NCBI RefSeq assembly: GCF_009745975.1
Contig: NZ_WHOL01000113.1
Span: 152,253 to 200,286 of the forward strand
Length of the DNA stretch: 48,034 nt
Reading direction: 5' to 3'
DNA from: Actinokineospora pegani
GTDB taxonomy: Bacteria > Actinomycetota > Actinomycetes > Mycobacteriales > Pseudonocardiaceae
Shown: positions 15,658-35,114 of the stretch, in pieces
How the letters are laid out: each line of letters opens with the position of its first letter
Position numbering within the stretch: the stretch's first letter is position 1
Position numbers and translations under genes: made by a program
The notes under the pieces: generated by a model
What the model saw: the letters and a program-made list of their open reading frames with translations, nothing else
The model's database searches: none
What the model was told of the DNA's origin: nothing

Positions 15658-15774
15658 ACACCTATACCTACCTGTAGCCAATTGAAGCTTTTCTGGTAGC
15701 CTCGCGGTGGTCGCTAGGAGCCACCGCTCGTCTTGCGATAAGCGGTGTTTCAACCCCAAAGACACAACCTGTCC

Positions 15775-15819
15775 AAGAAAAAGCCCGCTGCGACGCGTTC
15801 CCACGCGCCGCGGCGGGCT
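15775..15819 (-). terminator. rho-independent terminator after the 47-aa peptide gene
   Basis: AGCCCGC-GCG-CGCG pairs with its complement over 16 positions with two mismatches. On the minus strand it is followed by TTTTTCTT, one of the few classic U-tract terminators in the window. It sits 12 nt after the stop of the small gene, which supports that gene being expressed. Confidence 0.8.
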
Positions 15820-15831
15820 GGTCCCAGCCGA

Positions 15832-15975
15832 TCAGGGCAGTGGCACGACCGAGATCGCCGCCAGCAGAACCGCTGATCGGGAGAGCAGGAGCATGCTCAT
15901 GCGCAGGGTCGTCCCCCACCCGGCGCCTGCCACCTCGGCCAGCACCCCGATGGCGTCATTCCGTGGTTTCCTCAC
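15832..15975 (-). CDS. 47-aa peptide with a C-terminal membrane helix
   Basis: A small gene, GTG at 15975 with GGAAGGAA 6 nt upstream. The first 25 residues are basic or mixed (MRKPRNDAIGVLAEVAGAG), followed by a hydrophobic helix at 26-46 (MSMLLLSRSAVLLAAISVV) that ends the protein. Its size and shape resemble membrane-acting peptides or small regulators of membrane complexes. A dedicated terminator lies 12 nt downstream. No partner gene is coupled to it; the XRE gene is next on the same strand. The function is unknown. Confidence 0.55.
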   Translation of the reverse strand: MRKPRNDAIGVLAEVAGAGWGTTLRMSMLLLSRSAVLLAAISVVPLP

Positions 15976-16100
15976 CTGTGTTCCTTCCCGAACCGATGAT
16001 TGCTGCAACGCCGCCTGCGGTGACGTCGCGCATTCCTAGCCATTCGGTCCCGCGTTGTCTTGTCGATCGCGGAGAGCGGGGGAAATGGGGCGGTGAGCGG

Positions 16101-16772
16101 CTAGCGCATTGTCAGTCGCACGGCGAGCGCACGGGCGGCGCGCTCGGCCGTGGCGGCCAGGTTGGGGTCGAGGTGGGCGCGCAGGAGACGGACCGCGGAG
16201 CCCACGTCACCGGAGCCCAGGTGCTCCAGGATCTCGATGTGGTCGGCGATCGCGACCGCCACTGCCGCCGGGTCCGGGAACGAGTAGAGGTGGATCGGCC
16301 GCGTGCGGCGGTTGAGGGCGGTCAGGGCGCCGACGAGTTCGGTGTTGCCCGTGGCGGCCAGCAGCGCCGTGTGGAAGCGCTCGTCCTCCAGCGCGAAGTC
16401 GGGCCCCGGTGGGGGAGGCGCGGCCCGCAGCGCCCGCCAGCGCAGGAGTTCGGCGTCCAGGGCCGAGCGGTCATGGCCCAGGTCCGGGTCCTCGATGGCT
16501 CGGGTGATGCCGCGCAGCTCCACCGCCAGCCGCACCTCGTGCAGGTCGCGGACGGTGGCCAGGTCCGGCACCACGACGGAGTAGCCGTAGTCGTGGCGCC
16601 GGACCAGGCCGTCGGCGATGAGGCGGGTGAGGGCCTCGCGGACCGGGGTGCGGGAGACGCCGAGGGCGCGGGCGAGCTTGGGCTCGGTGAACCGGTCCGC
16701 GGGGGACCAGCGGGCGGCCAGGACCTCTTCGCGCAGGCGCAGGTAGACCTGGTCGCGCAGTGGCTCGGGCAC
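16101..16772 (-). CDS. GntR/FCD-family transcriptional regulator
   Basis: A 223-aa regulator. An N-terminal GntR winged helix occupies about residues 1-70 (DQVYLRLREEVLAARW, TEPKLARALGVSRTPVREAL, LIADGLVRR). The C-terminal FCD effector domain has the usual metal-site order (EVRLAVELRG, ERFHTALLAATGN, DHIEILEHLGSGD). GTG start, only 2 nt past the stop of urtE and without a Shine-Dalgarno sequence, so it is probably translated by coupling as the last gene of the urt operon. That position suggests it answers to urea or a nitrogen metabolite, but FCD effectors are usually carboxylates, so this is inference. Confidence 0.85.
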   Translation of the reverse strand: MPEPLRDQVYLRLREEVLAARWSPADRFTEPKLARALGVSRTPVREALTRLIADGLVRRHDYGYSVVVPDLATVRDLHEVRLAVELRGITRAIEDPDLGHDRSALDAELLRWRALRAAPPPPGPDFALEDERFHTALLAATGNTELVGALTALNRRTRPIHLYSFPDPAAVAVAIADHIEILEHLGSGDVGSAVRLLRAHLDPNLAATAERAARALAVRLTMR

Positions 16773-28192: not shown

Positions 28193-28360
28193 CGGAACAC
28201 ACTAGCCGGCCGGGGGTGTGAGCAGCGCCGCAGTCGCGCACAGACCTCCCCCCGCACAGGAGAGAGCCATGTAACCCGCGCACCCGGCGCGGACATCCAG
28301 GCGTAACGAGCCGTCCTTAGCTTGATCCGGGACAGGGTGAGCGGAGGGAGACGGGCTGCC

Positions 28361-31300
28361 GTGGCGGCTGAGTCGGTGCGCACGGTCTGTTCCTATTGCG
28401 GTGTCGGGTGCGGGATCGTGCTCGATGTCGGGATCGGACCCGGTGGGAAGCGGACGGTCCTCAAGGCCTCCGGCGACAAGCGGCACCCGACCAACGCCGG
28501 TCGACTGTGCACCAAGGGCGCGACGAGCGCCGAACTGCTCGCGGTCGGGGACCGGCTCGACACCGCGCTGGTCCGCGCCGACCGGGGCGCGGAGCCGGAG
28601 CGGACACCGGTGGACGCGGCGATCACCGAGACCGCGCGCAGGCTGCGGGCCATCTGGGACGAGCACGGCCCGGACTCGGTGGCGCTCTACGTCTCCGGGC
28701 AGATGACGCTCGAGGCCCAGTACCTGGCGACCAAGCTGGCCAAGGGCCACCTGCGCACGACGCGGATCGAGTCGAACTCCCGGCTGTGCATGGCCAGCGC
28801 GGGCACCGGCTACAAGCTGTCCCTGGGCGCCGACGGGCCGCCGGGGTCGTACGAGGACTTCGACCGGGCCGACGTGTTCCTGGTCACCGGCGCGAACATG
28901 GCCGACTGCCACCCGATCCTGTTCCTGCGGATGATGGACCGGGTCAAGGCGGGGGCCAAGCTCATCGTCGTCGACCCCCGGCGCAGCGCGACCGCCGCCA
29001 AGGCCGACCTGTTCCTCCAGATCAAGCCGGGCACCGACTTGGCGCTGCTCAACGGCCTGCTGCACCTGATCGTCGAGTCCGGACACGTCGACGAGGACTT
29101 CATCGACCGACACACCGAGGGCTGGGCGGCCATGCCCGGGTTCCTGGCCGAGTACACCCCCGAGCACGTCGCCGAGGTGACCGGCCTGGCCGAGGCCGAC
29201 ATCCGCGCCGCCGCCGAGCTGATCGGCGCGGCGGGGGAGTGGATGAGCTGCTGGACGATGGGGCTCAACCAGAGCACGCACGGCACCTGGAACACCAACG
29301 CCCTGGTCAACCTGCACCTGGCCACCGGGGCCATCTGCCGCCCGGGCAGCGGCCCGTTCTCGCTGACCGGCCAGCCCAACGCCATGGGCGGGCGCGAGAT
29401 GGGCTACATGGGACCCGGCCTGCCCGGCCAGCGCAGCACCATGGTCGAGGCCGACCGGGCGTTCGTCGAGGACGTCTGGGGCCTGCCCGCAGGCACGCTG
29501 CGGGCCGAGCCGGGCACCGGGACCATCGACCTGTTCGAGCGGATGGCCGCGGGCGAGGTCAAGGCCTGCTGGATCATCTGCACGAACCCGGTCAGCTCGG
29601 TGGCCAACCGCAAGACCGTGCTCGCGGGCCTGGAACGCGCCGAGTTCGTGGTCACCCAGGACGTCTTCGCCGCCACCGAGACCAACGCCTACGCCGACGT
29701 GGTGCTGCCCGCCGCGATGTGGGTCGAGGGCGAGGGCGTGATGATCAACTCCGAGCGCACCCTCACCCACGTGCCCGCCGTCGTCGACCCACCGGGGGAG
29801 GCGCTGCCGGACTGGCTGCTGATCGCGCGGGTCGCCCAGGAGATGGGCTTCGCCGAGGACTTCACCTACGCCAGCGCCGAGGAGGTCTACGCCGAGATCC
29901 AGCGGTTCGCCAACCCGGTCACCGGCTACGACCTGCGCGGCGCGGACTACGAGCGGCTGCGCGCCGACCCCGTCCAGTGGCCCAGCGCCGAGGGCGGCCC
30001 GGCCCGCAACCCCATCCGCTACCGCACCGACGACGGCCTGGTCTTCCCCACGCCCAGCGGCAAGGCGCGGTTCTTCGCGCGCCCGCACATGCCGGCCAAG
30101 GAGATGCCCGACGACGACTACCCGTTCGTGCTCAACACCGGCCGCGTGCAGCACCAGTGGCACACGCTGACCAAGACCGGCAAGGTCGACAAGCTGACCA
30201 AGCTCAACCCGGGGCCCTTCCTCGAACTCCACCCGGAGGACGCGGCGGCGCTCGAGGTGGTCGAGGGCGACTCGGTCGAGGTGGCCTCACGCCGGGGCCG
30301 TGCCGTGCTGCCCACCGTCGTGACCGACCGGGTGCGGCCGGGTGCGCTGTTCGCCCCGTTCCACTGGAACGACCTGTTCGGCGAGTACCTGAGCGTCAAC
30401 GCCGTCACCAACGACGCCGTCGACCCGCTGTCGCTGCAACCCGAGCTGAAGGTGTGCGCGGTGGCGCTGACCAAGGTGAGCACAGCCGCCAAGGCCCCGG
30501 TCGAGCTGCCCGCCGAGCCCGCGCCCGCCGCGGCGCTGGCCGCCGCGCTCGGCCTCCCGCCCACCCCGCCCGCCCTCGACGACCAGGCCAGGAGCTACCT
30601 GTCGGGGTTCCTGTCCGGGGTGTCGACCGAGGGCGCGGCGGCCGGGGTGCCGGTGCTGCCGCCGGGCTCGCCGCTCTCGGCCGGGCAGCGCGACTGGGTC
30701 AACGGGATGCTCGCCGGGCTGTTCTCCCGGGCCGCCGAGCCCGACGGCCGCGAGATCGTCGTGCTCTGGGCGTCGCAGACCGGCAACGCCGAGGAGGTCG
30801 CCACGACCGTGGCCGCCGAGCTGGCCGGGGCGGGCCACCGCGCGCGCGTGCTCTGCATGGCCGACGCCTCGCCGCGGACCCTGCCCAAGGAGGCCGACCT
30901 GCTGCTGATCAGCAGCACCTTCGGCGACGGCGACGCCCCGGACAACGGCACCGGGTTCTGGTCCGACCTGGCCTCGGCCGAGTCGTCGGCGTTCGCCGGG
31001 GTCCGCTACTCGGTGCTGGCGCTCGGCGACTCGAACTACGACAACTTCTGCGGGCACGGCCGCCGCCTCGACGAGCGGCTCGGCGAGCTCGGCGGGTCCC
31101 GGCTGGTGACCCGCGCCGACTGCGAGCCCGACTACACCGACTCCGCCCGGCGCTGGCTCGACCAGGTGCTCACCGCCCTGGCCGGGGCCCGCTCGCCCGC
31201 CGTGGTGACCGCGCCCGCCCCCGCGCCGACCGGGCGGGCCAAGGTCGGGGTGCGCACGGCGACCCTGGTCGACAACCGGCTGCTGAGCCTGCCCGGGGCG

Positions 31301-32344
31301 GCCAAGGAGGTCCGCCAGTTCACCTTCGAGGCCCCCGGCCTGGCCTACGAGGCGGGCGACGCGCTGGGGGTGTGGCCGGACAACGCCCCCTCGGTCGTGG
31401 CCGAGTGGCTGGCCGTCGTGGGGCACGACCCGGGGGAGCCGGTGGAGCTGCCCGGCATCGGCGTCGTCGGCCTCGGCGAGGCGCTGAGCAGGCACCTGGA
31501 GGTCTGCCGCGTCACCCCCACCCTGCTGCGCTTCCTCGCCGACCGCACCGGCGACCGGGACCTGGGCATCCTGCTGCGCCAGGACGACCGGGACGCGGTG
31601 GCGAAGTGGGCGTGGGGCTCCTCGGCGGTCGACGTCGCCGCCCGCTACCCGCTGCGCGCGTCCGCCCAGGACTGGGTCGGGGCGTTCAAGAAGTTGCGGC
31701 CCCGGCAGTACTCGATCTCGTCGTCACCGCTGGCCGACCCCGACCTCGTGCGGCTCACCGTGTCGGTCGTGCGCTTCCGGACCGGCTCGGGCACGGCCCG
31801 GGCGGGCGTGTGCTCGGCCCACCTCGCCGACGCCCCGCTGGGCACCGAGGTCCCGGTGTTCCTGCAGCGCGCGCCGCACTTCCGCCCGCCCGCGCCGCAC
31901 GTCCCCGCGATCATGGTCGGGCCGGGCACCGGCATCGCCCCGTTCAAGGGCTTCCTCGACCACCGCCGCGCCCGCGGCGACCAGGGGCCCAACTGGCTGT
32001 TCTTCGGCGAGCAGCGCCAGGCCACCGACTTCTACTACCGCCCGGAGCTGACCAGCTACCTCGACCAGGGCCTGCTGACCCGGCTCGACACCGCGTTCTC
32101 CCGCGACCAGCGGGCCAAGGTCTACGTCCAGGACCGCATCCGCGAGCACGGCGCGCACCTGTGGAACTGGCTGGAGGAGGGCGCCCACCTCTACATCTGC
32201 GGGGACGCCGCGCGCATGGCCAAGGACGTCGACCGCACCCTGCACGAGGTGATCGCCCACCACGGCCACCTCAGCTCGGGCGAGGCCGAGGCGTACGTGA
32301 AGTCGCTGACCGCGGCGTCGCGGTACGCCCGCGACATCTACTGA
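28361..32344 (+). CDS. fused assimilatory nitrate reductase / diflavin reductase
   Basis: A 1327-aa fusion. Residues 1-700 form a molybdopterin oxidoreductase of the assimilatory nitrate reductase (NasA/NarB) type with an N-terminal 4Fe-4S cluster (Cys10, 13, 17, 50; CSYCGVGCG and RLCTKG), SRLCMASAG, and the Mo-bisPGD C-terminal domain ([16 protein letters not shown]). A linker of about 90 residues leads to a flavodoxin FMN domain (about 796-945; [32 protein letters not shown]) and a CysJ-type FAD/NADPH module ([35 protein letters not shown]). The protein can thus carry electrons from NAD(P)H to nitrate by itself. GTG start with GGAGGGAG upstream. Confidence 0.92.
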
Positions 32345-32452
32345 CCGGGTTCATGCCCTGAGCGAACGGGGGCCCAGCGGCGGGCGCGCACCCCGGCCCG
32401 CTCGCTAGAGTCGACCCAGGCACTACCCGTCAGAGCGGAGAGAAGGCGCAAC

Positions 32453-33076
32453 GTGACGAAGCACTACCCGGAGGCGCGGTACATCCTCCCGTCGGCGACG
32501 GAGCGCACCAGCTACGGCACGGTCGAGACCAACCCGTACAACAAGCTCTACGACGAGCGGCAGATCATGCTCGGGGTGCAGATCGACGACGCCTCCGCCA
32601 ACGACGTCATGGCGCAGATCCTGCACCTGGAGAGCGTTGACCCCGACCGCGACATCACGATCTACATCAACTCCCCCGGCGGCGCGTTCTCGTCGATGAT
32701 GGCCATCTACGACACGATGCAGTACGTGCGCCCCGACATCCAGACCGTCTGCCTCGGCCAGGCCGTCGAGGCCGCCGCGCTGCTGCTCGCCGCGGGCACC
32801 AAGGGCAAGCGGATGGCGCTGCCGCACTCCCGCCTGATGATCCACCAGCCCGAGGTCGGCGGCATCCGCGGCCAGGTCTCCGACCTGGAGATCCAGGCCC
32901 GCGAGATCCAGCGGATGCGCGACCTCACCGAGGACACCCTCGCCCAGCACACCGGCCACACCCGCGAGCAGATCCACACCGACATCGAGCGCCGCAAGAT
33001 CCTCACCGCCGAGCAGGCCAAGGAGTACGGCCTGATCGACACGGTCCTGCCGTACCGCAAGCTCTCGGCGCAGTAG
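32453..33076 (+). CDS. ClpP-like protease subunit with destroyed catalytic triad
   Basis: A 207-aa ClpP paralogue of the actinobacterial ClpP2 type (NPYNKLYDERQIMLGVQIDD, YINSPGGAFSSMMAIYDTMQ). The nucleophile site reads CLGQAVEAAALLLAAG where active ClpP has GQAASxx: Ser is Glu106. His131 (MIHQP) is kept, but the catalytic Asp in the E-R-D motif is Arg181 (DIERRKIL). Two of three catalytic residues are therefore gone while the structural core is intact, so it is predicted to be an inactive ring subunit. GTG start with GGAGAGAAGG upstream. It converges on an active ClpP gene at 33141-33725. Confidence 0.9.
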   Translation: MTKHYPEARYILPSATERTSYGTVETNPYNKLYDERQIMLGVQIDDASANDVMAQILHLESVDPDRDITIYINSPGGAFSSMMAIYDTMQYVRPDIQTVCLGQAVEAAALLLAAGTKGKRMALPHSRLMIHQPEVGGIRGQVSDLEIQAREIQRMRDLTEDTLAQHTGHTREQIHTDIERRKILTAEQAKEYGLIDTVLPYRKLSAQ

Positions 33077-33088
33077 GCCCCAGCCGGA

Positions 33089-33127
33089 CAGAGGACCCGC
33101 CCCCGATCGCCCGGGGCGGGTCCTCTG
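33089..33127. terminator. bidirectional terminator between the two clpP genes
   Basis: CAGAGGACCCGCCCC and GGGGCGGGTCCTCTG form a perfect 15-bp stem with a 9-nt loop, 12 nt after the plus-strand stop and 13 nt before the minus-strand stop. Confidence 0.88.
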
Positions 33128-33140
33128 TGGTTTCCGCCGC

Positions 33141-33725
33141 TCAGCCGCCCGCACCCCGGGCGATGTGGTCGGCGAACCCGTAGGCCAGCGCCTCCTCGGT
33201 GGTGAACCACCGGTCCCGGTCGGAGTCGGTCGTGATCCGCTCCACGGTCTGCCCGGTCTGCCGCGCCGTGATCTCCGCGACCTGCCGCTTGGCGTGGTTG
33301 AACGCCTGCGCCTGGATCTGGATGTCACTCGCCGTCCCCCCGACCCCCGCGGACGGCTGGTGCATCAGCACCCGCGTGTGCGGCAGCAGGAACCGCTTCC
33401 CCGGCGCCCCCGAGGACAACAGGAACTGCCCCATCGACGCGCACAACCCCATCCCCCAGGTCTGCACGTCCGGCTCGATCAGTTGCATCGTGTCGTAGAT
33501 GGCCATTCCCGCGGTCACCGACCCGCCGGGGGAGTTGATGTAGAACTTGATGTCCTCGACCGGGTCGGTGGCCGCCAACAGCAAGAGCTGCGCCGTCAAC
33601 CGGTTCGCCACCTCGTCGGTGACCTCCGTGCCCAGGAACACGATCCGCGAACTCAACAACTGCCGGAACACCGAGTCGTCGAGCGCGTGCGAGGACTCCG
33701 AGTTCATCACTGCGGTGCTGGTCAT
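33141..33725 (-). CDS. clpP: ATP-dependent Clp protease proteolytic subunit (active-site intact)
   Basis: A 194-aa ClpP serine peptidase that would degrade substrates fed by ClpX/ClpC. Catalytic Ser97 (GLCASMGQFLLSSG), His122 (LMHQP) and Asp171 (DSDRDRWF) are all present, with YINSPGGSVTAG for the oxyanion loop. ATG at 33725 has AGAGG upstream; an in-frame GTG at 33746 would add seven residues. It faces the triad-less ClpP across a shared terminator. The usual clpP1P2-clpX locus is not here, so this is an accessory ClpP pair. Confidence 0.9.
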   Translation of the reverse strand: MTSTAVMNSESSHALDDSVFRQLLSSRIVFLGTEVTDEVANRLTAQLLLLAATDPVEDIKFYINSPGGSVTAGMAIYDTMQLIEPDVQTWGMGLCASMGQFLLSSGAPGKRFLLPHTRVLMHQPSAGVGGTASDIQIQAQAFNHAKRQVAEITARQTGQTVERITTDSDRDRWFTTEEALAYGFADHIARGAGG

Positions 33726-33913
33726 GGTGGGGACGCCTCTCTCCACTGGATTCCGGGCCTGTCCCAGCGACGCTACCGGCGGGAGGACTCCCCATCGCCG
33801 ATGTTCGCTCGCAGCTCACAAGACGGAGAGTCATTGTGGCGCAAGGGGTTTCACTAAGAGCGCAAAGATGTTCTTTCCACAGTGGACTTCTCGGGCCTCG
33901 CTGCCCCTGCCGG

Positions 33914-34453
33914 TCACACAGCCTTGAGCGGCACGTGCGGGCCATCCGGCAACTCCACCCGGATCACGTCCCCGACCCGCGTCTCGCCCCCCACCAGGAC
34001 CACGGCCATGATCCCCGCCCGCCGCACGACGTTGCCCGCCTCGTCCCGCCCCACCACGTGCTGGAGCAACCCCTCCTGGAACGCCTCGATCTGCGGGCAC
34101 GGATTCCGCAGCCCGGTCACCTCGACGACGGCCTCGGCCCCGAGGCGCAGCCGAGTCCCGGTGGGCAGCCCGAGCAGGTCGACCCCCCGGGTGGTGACGT
34201 TCTCGCCCAACTGCCCCGCGGCCACCGAGAACCCGAGCCCGTTCAGCTCGTCGTGCAACTCGGCGTGCATCAGGTGGACCTGGCGGAGGTTGGGCTGAGT
34301 GGGGTCGCGCCGCACGCGGGAGCGGTGCTTCACCAGCTCGCCCGCGTGCACGTCCCCCTCGACCCCGAGACCGGCGAGCAGCGTGATGCTGTCCCGGTTC
34401 GGCTTGGTGAACGTGTACCGCTCACTCTGGCTCACAGCCTGAATCGTCCCCAT
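33914..34453 (-). CDS. MOSC-domain protein
   Basis: A 179-aa MOSC protein, the fold of molybdenum-cofactor sulfurases and of YiiM-type molybdoenzymes. Seen: AVSQSERYTFTKPNRDSITL, GLGVEGDVHAGELVKHRSRV in parts (GVEGDxHxG), LHDELNGLGFSVAAGQLGEN in parts (GxxGEN) and the conserved Cys in GLRNPCPQIEAF, which ligates molybdenum in active members. ATG start with a weak CCAGG ribosome site. It lies near the molybdenum nitrate reductase fusion but on the other strand, so a shared role is only suggestive. Confidence 0.88.
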   Translation of the reverse strand: MGTIQAVSQSERYTFTKPNRDSITLLAGLGVEGDVHAGELVKHRSRVRRDPTQPNLRQVHLMHAELHDELNGLGFSVAAGQLGENVTTRGVDLLGLPTGTRLRLGAEAVVEVTGLRNPCPQIEAFQEGLLQHVVGRDEAGNVVRRAGIMAVVLVGGETRVGDVIRVELPDGPHVPLKAV

Positions 34454-34766
34454 GACCTGGAGACACTAGTTCCCAGTCGCCGTCCCACACCAGCCTGACG
34501 ACGACGAGCGGGGCAGGGTTGAGTACTTCCAACCCTGCCCCGCTCGCAATCCATGACGGAATCCGCTGCTGCGCCTGGGCGCAAGATTCACCGCACCGAC
34601 TCTGCCAGTAAGTGTTCCTTACTATGCGCCCACGCGTCAGTGCAACTAAAGATCCCGTCGGATTTTTCATCACGTCTTGTTGCAATGACGAGAAGTCATT
34701 CCAACACGCTTCGATCGTTGTGCCGGTGACCCGCCGAAGCGACGATCACCGACGGGGAGAGCTTGC
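34454..34766. other. intergenic region with a strong hairpin
   Basis: No gene is supportable; an 87-codon minus-strand frame has no coding character and no ribosome site. It contains the hairpin at 34505-34546 and the MOSC gene promoter. Confidence 0.5.
34505..34546. terminator. 17-bp perfect hairpin
   Basis: CGAGCGGGGCAGGGTTG and CAACCCTGCCCCGCTCG flank an 8-nt loop. It is the strongest stem in this gap, about 220 nt past the secreted small protein gene and 52 nt before the MOSC start. It probably ends minus-strand transcripts. Confidence 0.65.
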
Positions 34767-35114
34767 TCAGTTCTCCTGCGAGGTGCCACCGTCGACCAGG
34801 CCGGCCGCGGCGCAGACGGAGGGGGTGTTGCCCTCGGCCTCGGACTCGCCCGGGGACAGGATCGGGACGCTGAGGCCGTTGGCGACGTCCTCGACCGGAA
34901 CCTGAACGCCCAGCACGTTGATGTTGTTGTCGCACACGCCGACGTTGGCGTTCACGTTGTGCAGGATGTCGGTGTTGTTGAGGTTCACCAGACCAACCTG
35001 GCCAAAGTCGTCGTCGTGCTCCTGGACATCGGCCGCCTGCGCGGTAGCGAAACCACTCAGCATGACCATACCCGCGGCAACACCCGCAGTGACAACGCCG
35101 ATCTTCTTCAACAT
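34767..35114 (-). CDS. small secreted Asn-rich protein
   Basis: A 115-aa secreted protein; ATG at 35114 with AAGGAA 6 nt upstream. The signal peptide (MLKKIGVVTAGVAAGMVMLS, AxA near 28) precedes a mature 87-aa chain rich in Asn and Val: LVNLNNTDILHNVNANVGVC, DNNINVLGVQVPVEDVANGL, ending GLVDGGTSQEN, with two Cys (about 60 and 100) that could form one disulfide. The hydrophobic-Asn pattern recalls rodlin and chaplin surface proteins of filamentous actinomycetes, but it matches neither clearly. It is monocistronic with an AT-rich promoter region upstream. Confidence 0.75.
   Translation of the reverse strand: MLKKIGVVTAGVAAGMVMLSGFATAQAADVQEHDDDFGQVGLVNLNNTDILHNVNANVGVCDNNINVLGVQVPVEDVANGLSVPILSPGESEAEGNTPSVCAAAGLVDGGTSQEN

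What the first reader, a model, noticed from the sequence alone, without database searches (positions are those of the whole stretch)
32453..33725. Convergent pair of ClpP subunits, one with Ser-to-Glu and Asp-to-Arg catalytic replacements
The plus-strand ClpP has Glu106 for the nucleophile and Arg181 for the acid, keeping His131, while the facing ClpP has an intact Ser97-His122-Asp171 triad. Inactive ClpR subunits are known from cyanobacteria, plastids and Apicomplexa, but a ClpP2-like actinobacterial subunit with these two charge-bearing replacements is, to my knowledge, not described. A mixed heptamer-heptamer complex with one dead ring could change substrate gating, or a Glu106-Arg181 salt bridge could stabilise the site. 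The convergent pair lies outside the normal clpP1P2-clpX locus.
Basis: partly seen in the sequence, partly recalled or inferred. Interest (0 to 1): 0.8.

Follow-up and report, generated by a model that had tools for sequence, protein, structure and literature searches.

The report
Dead ClpP ring with swapped triad
A soil-type actinobacterium carries a spare protease subunit whose cutting site has been replaced (serine by glutamate, aspartate by arginine) while the rest of the protein stays intact, and wider comparison suggests that this half of the paired protease often loses its cutting site in these bacteria while its partner hardly ever does.

Summary
The plus-strand gene (32453-33076) is a ClpP2-type subunit with Glu106, His131, Arg181; the facing gene (33141-33725) is ClpP1-type with Ser97-His122-Asp171. 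Of 62 positions nearly invariant in 154 intact ClpP2-type rows, the gene changes four, two of them triad positions; the unfoldase-docking cleft is kept. This looks like selective loss of catalysis, not decay. It groups with rare extra ClpP2 copies of Pseudonocardiaceae that have other triads (LQA, SRQ, SHN). Among the loci I collected (a targeted, not random, set), 51 of 219 ClpP2-side rows have altered triads, at least 12 changes, against 1 of 225 ClpP1-side rows. Ser-to-Glu arose separately in genus g127, again with Asp lost (9 of 9 read). Streptomyces operons taken as clpP3clpP4 carry His-to-Gly on the P2 side (9 of 9 read). Altered operonic subunits are under purifying selection. Best model: a catalytically inactive unfoldase-docking ring on an active ClpP1-type ring, since the ClpP2 serine is dispensable in Streptomyces (PMC9765437). 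Partner, expression and assembly are untested. New variant of a known kind (ClpR-like).

The parts
32453..33076 (+). ClpP2-type subunit P2' (207 aa) with Glu106-His131-Arg181 in place of Ser-His-Asp
   Evidence: best matches among solved structures are chains named ClpP subunit 2; AF2 monomer model, mean pLDDT 82.0
32768..32770 (+). codon GAG, Glu106 at the nucleophile position
32843..32845 (+). codon CAC, His131, catalytic His kept
32993..32995 (+). codon CGC, Arg181 at the catalytic Asp position
33141..33725 (-). ClpP1-type subunit P1' (194 aa from ATG 33725; GTG 33746 also open) with intact Ser97-His122-Asp171
33088..33128 (.). perfect 16-bp inverted repeat with 9-nt loop between the convergent stops; probable shared terminator (inferred)
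   Evidence: z = -4.50

Best explanation
P2' is a functional but non-catalytic ClpP2-type subunit. Its ring docks the AAA+ unfoldase through the kept hydrophobic cleft and stacks on a ring of an active ClpP1-type subunit, most simply the neighbouring P1', whose seven triads do the cutting. It takes to fixation the division of labour measured in Streptomyces ClpP1P2, where the ClpP2 serine is dispensable. Shown here: the triad replacement, conservation elsewhere in the protein, conservation of the docking cleft, recurrence almost only on the P2 side, purifying selection on comparable operonic subunits. Inferred: loss of activity, assembly, the partner, and use of the general Clp ATPases of this genome.
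For: 62 positions are at least 97% invariant in 154 intact ClpP2-type rows; P2' changes F39M, S78A, S106E, D181R only. Tyr71 is kept and position 91 is aromatic in P2' and in the 9 other altered P2 copies of that analysis, and each of the 10 cleft residues is one also seen in intact copies. 51 of 219 P2-side rows altered (window gene counted twice) with at least 12 changes on a FastTree tree, against 1 of 225 P1-side rows. Median pN/pS of altered operonic P2-side subunits: 0.154 (g127), 0.216 (g109), 0.228 (Pseudonocardiaceae), intact partners 0.129, 0.210, 0.216. PMC9765437 section 6 (read): ClpP1 with ClpP2 S131A keeps full activity, ClpP1 S113A does not, unfoldases act through ClpP2. PMC4416901 passages: an inactive ClpP2 ring with an active ClpP1 ring processes somewhat faster than wild type.
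Against: No expression or assembly data. No close orthologue, so selection on P2' itself cannot be measured. P1' and P2' converge, so they are not one operon. P1'-type orphans occur in genomes with only one ClpP2-type match (G015, G016, G034), and G385, G444 and G028 have an altered extra P2 without an orphan P1-type gene in the lists. The own genome holds a second ClpP1-type gene that could be the partner. Duplication alone does not bring the loss: 16 of 18 operonic extra copies are intact, and 10 of 33 P2-side rows are SHD. Among P4-type rows one altered copy (G056) has His at pocket position 91. Housekeeping ClpP1 of the genus is more constrained (pN/pS 0.096) than any altered group. My loci were chosen while looking for extra copies or best hits, so the counts are not a random sample.
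Confidence: 0.68

Rival explanations
1. P2' is a regulatory or protective subunit: by entering the housekeeping core it displaces the active ClpP2 or caps ClpP1, as ClpP-ADEP of Streptomyces hawaiiensis enters the core to protect against a ClpP-directed antibiotic.
For: PMC12607617 (section 3 part 1 and passages): an accessory ClpP1-like subunit blocks ClpP1 and forms a new core with ClpP2. The strain's tig-clpP2-clpX locus lacks clpP1, as in congener G008, so the ClpP1 side here is unusual.
Against: ClpP-ADEP is ClpP1-like; P2' is ClpP2-like. No search for biosynthetic clusters was run in this genome, so this is weak evidence either way.
Confidence: 0.17
2. P2' is a pseudogene in early decay.
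For: Two triad residues are gone; best other match in 390 family genomes is 75% identical.
Against: Intact frame, GC3 of 1.00, only 4 of 62 near-invariant positions changed, two of them in the triad, each triad change two or more bases from the usual codons; comparable losses elsewhere are kept under selection.
Confidence: 0.08
3. P2' works as in the best explanation, but with the relocated divergent ClpP1-type gene of the same genome (G000:C116:75081-75623) and not with P1'.
For: That gene is the ClpP1-type gene nearest the housekeeping locus. P1'-type orphans occur without an altered P2, so P1' may pair with the housekeeping ClpP2.
Against: P1' and P2' are neighbours; three of the four genomes of the P2' clade (G000, G023, G166, not G385) hold an orphan of the wider P1' group (that wider group has support 91/77).
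Confidence: 0.25
4. The Glu106-His131 pair still hydrolyses something by another chemistry.
For: His is kept in both separate Glu lineages.
Against: Glu is no serine-protease nucleophile; the Asp is gone in both lineages; other P2-side lineages lose His as well (SGD, LQA, DTT).
Confidence: 0.03

Closest known systems
Actinobacterial ClpP2 (Mycobacterium, Streptomyces)
   Same: Sequence family, docking cleft, predicted fold; serine dispensable in Streptomyces ClpP1P2 (PMC9765437 section 6)
   Different: Catalytic Ser and Asp replaced; gene outside the clpX locus and convergent with its ClpP1-type neighbour
ClpR of cyanobacteria, plastids and apicoplast
   Same: Non-catalytic ClpP paralogue kept beside active ones
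   Different: ClpR architecture is recalled (starts of the abstracts of PMC6508832 and PMC4673316 seen in listings); P2' is nearest to actinobacterial ClpP2
Listeria ClpP1 (Asp to Asn)
   Same: Altered triad in one ring of a hetero-tetradecamer; heterocomplex has raised ClpX affinity (PMC5361862 passages)
   Different: Listeria ClpP1 lacks the N-terminal chaperone-binding motif; P2' loses Ser and keeps the docking cleft
Streptomyces clpP3clpP4-type operon
   Same: Intact P1-side and altered P2-side subunit (SGD, once SGE) in 9 of 9 g109 loci read and SGD in S. fungicidicus
   Different: Its P2-side subunit is 53% identical to the own housekeeping ClpP2; operonic; His lost, not Ser. That it is clpP3clpP4 is taken from arrangement, not checked against S. 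lividans
ClpP-ADEP of S. hawaiiensis
   Same: Accessory ClpP entering the core
   Different: ClpP1-like and linked to an ADEP cluster (PMC12607617)

Membership tests
Actinobacterial ClpP2 subunit | Closest to ClpP2, not ClpP1, by sequence and tree | tested here: met
   Best matches among solved structures are chains named ClpP subunit 2; places among ClpP2-type rows
Actinobacterial ClpP2 subunit | Hydrophobic cleft for LGF/IGF loops of unfoldases | tested here: met
   T69, Y71, Y91 (positions after PMC9765437) and seven further positions mapped with recalled E. coli numbering
Active S14 peptidase | Ser-His-Asp triad | tested here: not met
   Glu-His-Arg
ClpR | ClpP paralogue lacking the triad | tested here: met
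ClpR | Descent from the cyanobacterial/plastid ClpR lineage | tested here: inconclusive
   NCBIfam PRK12552 (recalled as a ClpR-type model) scores 160 against a cut-off of 263, PRK12553 scores 296.4 against 228; nearest rows are actinobacterial ClpP2, but no ClpR sequence was in the trees
ClpR | Assembles with active ClpP subunits | not testable with these tools
   no complex prediction or experiment
ClpP-ADEP type resistance subunit | ClpP1-like accessory subunit | tested here: not met
   P2' is ClpP2-like
ClpP-ADEP type resistance subunit | Linked to an ADEP biosynthesis cluster | not tested
   no cluster search was run
clpP3clpP4-type operon | Two same-strand adjacent genes, P1-side then P2-side | tested here: not met
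   window genes converge; P2' falls with ClpP2, not with the P4-type rows

The most novel reading that the evidence does not exclude
Swapped-acid ring. In both separate lineages with Glu at the nucleophile position (window EHR; g127 EHN or EHH, 9 of 9 read) the catalytic Asp is lost and His kept, so the carboxylate has moved to the other end of the relay. The built-in Glu may act as a permanent active-site ligand that holds the dead docking ring in the extended, occupied-like state. Active-site modification of ClpP is reported to raise ClpX affinity (PMC5361862 passages), so such a ring would be a constitutive high-affinity loading dock feeding an active ClpP1-type ring. More generally, actinobacteria evolve one-sided proteases by losing catalysis on the unfoldase-docking ring.
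Probability: 0.3. Interest if true: 0.78.

Novelty: new variant of a known kind. Interest (0 to 1): 0.62.

Why it matters
It gives natural experiments for a question open in Clp biology: why two-ring ClpP1P2 proteases keep two kinds of active site. Here one ring loses catalysis repeatedly and its partner almost never does, with the unfoldase dock preserved. It also flags that the P2-side subunit of clpP3clpP4-type operons in Streptomyces genomes lacks the catalytic His, and that one actinobacterial genus has Glu at the nucleophile, which can be tested for an effect on unfoldase affinity.

Tried and rejected
Pseudogene: held unlikely on frame, GC3 and selective conservation. Sequencing error: held unlikely because each change differs from the usual codons at two or more bases. 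Unique oddity: rejected after searches found many altered P2-side subunits. Shared neighbourhood between the P2' loci compared: none apart from the ClpP genes. ClgR box (motif recalled) in front of the window pair: no match at 2 or fewer mismatches for P1', one at 2 mismatches for P2', about background (the shorter pattern matched at chance level); 7 of 21 upstream regions scanned, one of them the own housekeeping clpP2, match at 1 or fewer mismatches where 0.03 per region was the window background, so the idea stays open for relatives. Dedicated unfoldase: own genome shows ClpX beside clpP2, two long Clp ATPase frames (882 and 885 aa, ClpB and ClpC not told apart) and three weak matches, none on the window's contig. 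Rfam at 32000-35000: no match at gathering scores. Structure library search: library absent. Glu-Arg salt bridge: no coordinates, not tested. Genus name of the window genome: not resolved.

Full report
What is there. The plus gene at 32453-33076 encodes 207 aa of ClpP with Glu106, His131 and Arg181 at the triad positions; the minus gene, from 33725 (ATG) or 33746 (GTG) down to 33141, encodes a ClpP with an intact triad. They converge on a perfect 16-bp inverted repeat. I call them P2' and P1'. P2' is ClpP2-type: its best matches among solved structures are chains named ClpP subunit 2, and its monomer model has mean pLDDT 82.0. P1' is ClpP1-type.

The rest of the genome. A Pfam search finds four ClpPs. 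The third is an intact ClpP2 between tig and clpX; the fourth is an intact ClpP1-type gene 14 kb away (tig recognised by eye). So the usual tig-clpP1-clpP2-clpX order is broken here, and in congener G008 too no ClpP1-type gene lies between tig and clpP2. Six matches to the Clp ATPase domain are ClpX, two long frames and three weak ones; none is on the window's contig. Family f1 is Pseudonocardiaceae: G034 matches the named Kutzneria viridogrisea contig by position, and G385 the named Amycolatopsis xylanica contig by length and position.

No close orthologue. In 16 genomes of the genus the best other match is 73% identical.

Selective loss. Among 154 intact ClpP2-type rows, 62 positions are at least 97% invariant. 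P2' changes four: F39M, S78A, S106E, D181R. By hand arithmetic, drawing two or more of three triad sites in four changes out of 62 has a chance near 0.009. The cleft that takes the unfoldase loops is kept: Thr69, Tyr71, Tyr91, and all ten cleft residues are ones used by intact copies. The three named positions follow PMC9765437 section 6; the other seven rest on recalled E. coli numbering.

A degenerate ClpP2 lineage. 25 of 390 family genomes have two ClpP2-type matches at E <= 1e-57 (counted by eye; only the 8 best candidates per genome were scored there, so copies may be missed). I read the extra copy in all 25. In G036, G097 and G301 I took the copy beside tig and clpX (checked in G036 only) as housekeeping and the operonic one as extra. 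9 of 25 have altered triads: EHR (window), LQA (G385), SRQ (G023), SHN (G166), DTT (G091), SHE (G028), PRE (G444), SRE (G469), SHN (G033). All 7 that do not stand in an operon with a ClpP1-type gene are altered; 2 of 18 operonic ones are (Fisher p = 7.5e-5; the split was made after seeing the data and the rows are related). On an IQ-TREE tree built without the triad columns, P2' groups with LQA and SRQ (99/83) and with SHN of G166 (89/80); DTT is unresolved and the rest fall elsewhere (bootstrap not settled). An earlier FastTree put DTT in the same group. SHN and SHE copies may keep some activity; altered does not always mean dead.

P1' has its own lineage. It groups with G036, G097, G301, G015, G016 and G034 (98/94) and, at 91/77, with orphans of G166, G023, G031, G044 and G057. 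About 136 of 390 family genomes have two or more ClpP1-type matches at E <= 1e-60 (table, my transcription, counted). So extra ClpP1-type genes are common and extra ClpP2-type genes rare. Three of the four genomes of the P2' clade also hold an orphan of that wider P1' group; G385 does not.

The asymmetry. Sides were assigned by which window protein scored higher. Over everything collected, 167 of 219 ClpP2-side rows are SHD, 51 altered (the window gene counts twice) and 1 is cut off by a contig end, with at least 12 changes on a FastTree tree. On the ClpP1 side 224 of 225 rows are SHD; the exception is an SRG subunit of G166 that follows an intact ClpP1-type gene; 3 short rows were dropped. 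clpP3clpP4-type operons show it most: AHD in 15 P2-side rows, 12 of them of family f1, SGD in 8 and SGE in 1 of the 9 g109 loci read (15 g109 genomes were searched) and SGD in the named S. fungicidicus plasmid locus, GHQ in a Prescottella equi plasmid locus, EHN or EHH in 9 of 9 g127 loci read (10 g127 genomes were searched). g109 is taken as Streptomyces because these proteins are 82-91% identical to the S. fungicidicus one. Not all lose it: 10 of 33 P2-side rows of that set are SHD. The loci were fetched while looking for extra copies or best hits, so the frequencies are not population estimates.

The altered subunits are kept. Median pN/pS is 0.154, 0.216 and 0.228 for three altered operonic groups (9, 9 and 12 genes) against 0.129, 0.210 and 0.216 for their intact partners, and 0.201 and 0.096 for housekeeping ClpP2 and ClpP1 of the genus. 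This cannot be measured for P2' itself.

Two Glu events. Glu at the nucleophile needs two changes on the tree. In both lineages His is kept and Asp replaced, by Arg, Asn or His. That is the basis of the swapped-acid idea, which is inference.

Mechanism. In Streptomyces the ClpP2 serine can be removed without loss of activity and the unfoldases act through ClpP2 (PMC9765437, section 6 read and passages seen). In mycobacteria an inactive ClpP2 ring on an active ClpP1 ring processes somewhat faster than wild type (PMC4416901 passages). In Listeria the heterocomplex, and partial active-site alkylation, raise ClpX affinity (PMC5361862 passages). A docking-only P2' ring on an active ClpP1-type ring follows from these. 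The partner, expression and activity are not shown.

In print. Ten searches of the open PMC library (several lists capped, one returned nothing) listed no paper whose title or abstract start describes catalytically altered ClpP2-side subunits in actinobacteria. I saw passages or sections of six papers (PMC9765437, PMC12607617, PMC5361862, PMC10149685, PMC9775585, PMC4416901) and none whole. Subscription papers, among them the original clpP3clpP4 work, were not available, so prior notice is possible.

Verdict. A real, selective and functional-looking loss of catalysis in a ClpP2-type subunit, one case of a recurrent one-sided loss. New variant of a known kind.

Noticed in passing
L264-L272 and L261 (P2-side genes): Streptomyces P2-side subunit of the clpP3clpP4-type operon has Gly at the catalytic His (SGD in 8, SGE in 1 of 9 g109 loci read; SGD in S. 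fungicidicus).
   Followed up: partly
L279-L283, L285-L287, L290: Genus g127 of family f34 has Glu at the nucleophile with Asn or His at the Asp position in 9 of 9 loci read.
   Followed up: partly
L145:1055-1675 and 15735-16367; L164:3623-4249: Own genome and congener G008 have no ClpP1-type gene between tig and clpP2; a divergent ClpP1-type gene lies elsewhere.
   Followed up: partly
L161:1-3145 and L149:1-3707: Two ORFs that match each other and look by eye like peptide-synthetase genes lie near the ClpP1 of G008 and near the SVE ClpP2 of G044; no family search was run.
   Followed up: no
G014 (congener, 7.3 Mb, 1 contig): No ClpP match at E <= 1e-3 with either window protein in a genome given as 99% complete; may be masking.
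   Followed up: no
L253:2274-2927: The only altered ClpP1-side subunit seen (SRG), after an intact ClpP1-type gene in G166.
   Followed up: no
G001:C4, G021:C47, G385:C5: P4-type matches of these genomes are flagged with one in-frame stop inside the aligned stretch.
   Followed up: no
window 28322-32344: 1340-aa ORF whose front matches formate dehydrogenase/assimilatory nitrate reductase and whose end matches a CysJ-type flavoprotein.
   Followed up: no
upstream of clpP genes in L146, L149, L151, L157, L180, L240: ClgR-box-like sites (motif recalled) at 1 or fewer mismatches; none at the window pair at that level.
   Followed up: partly
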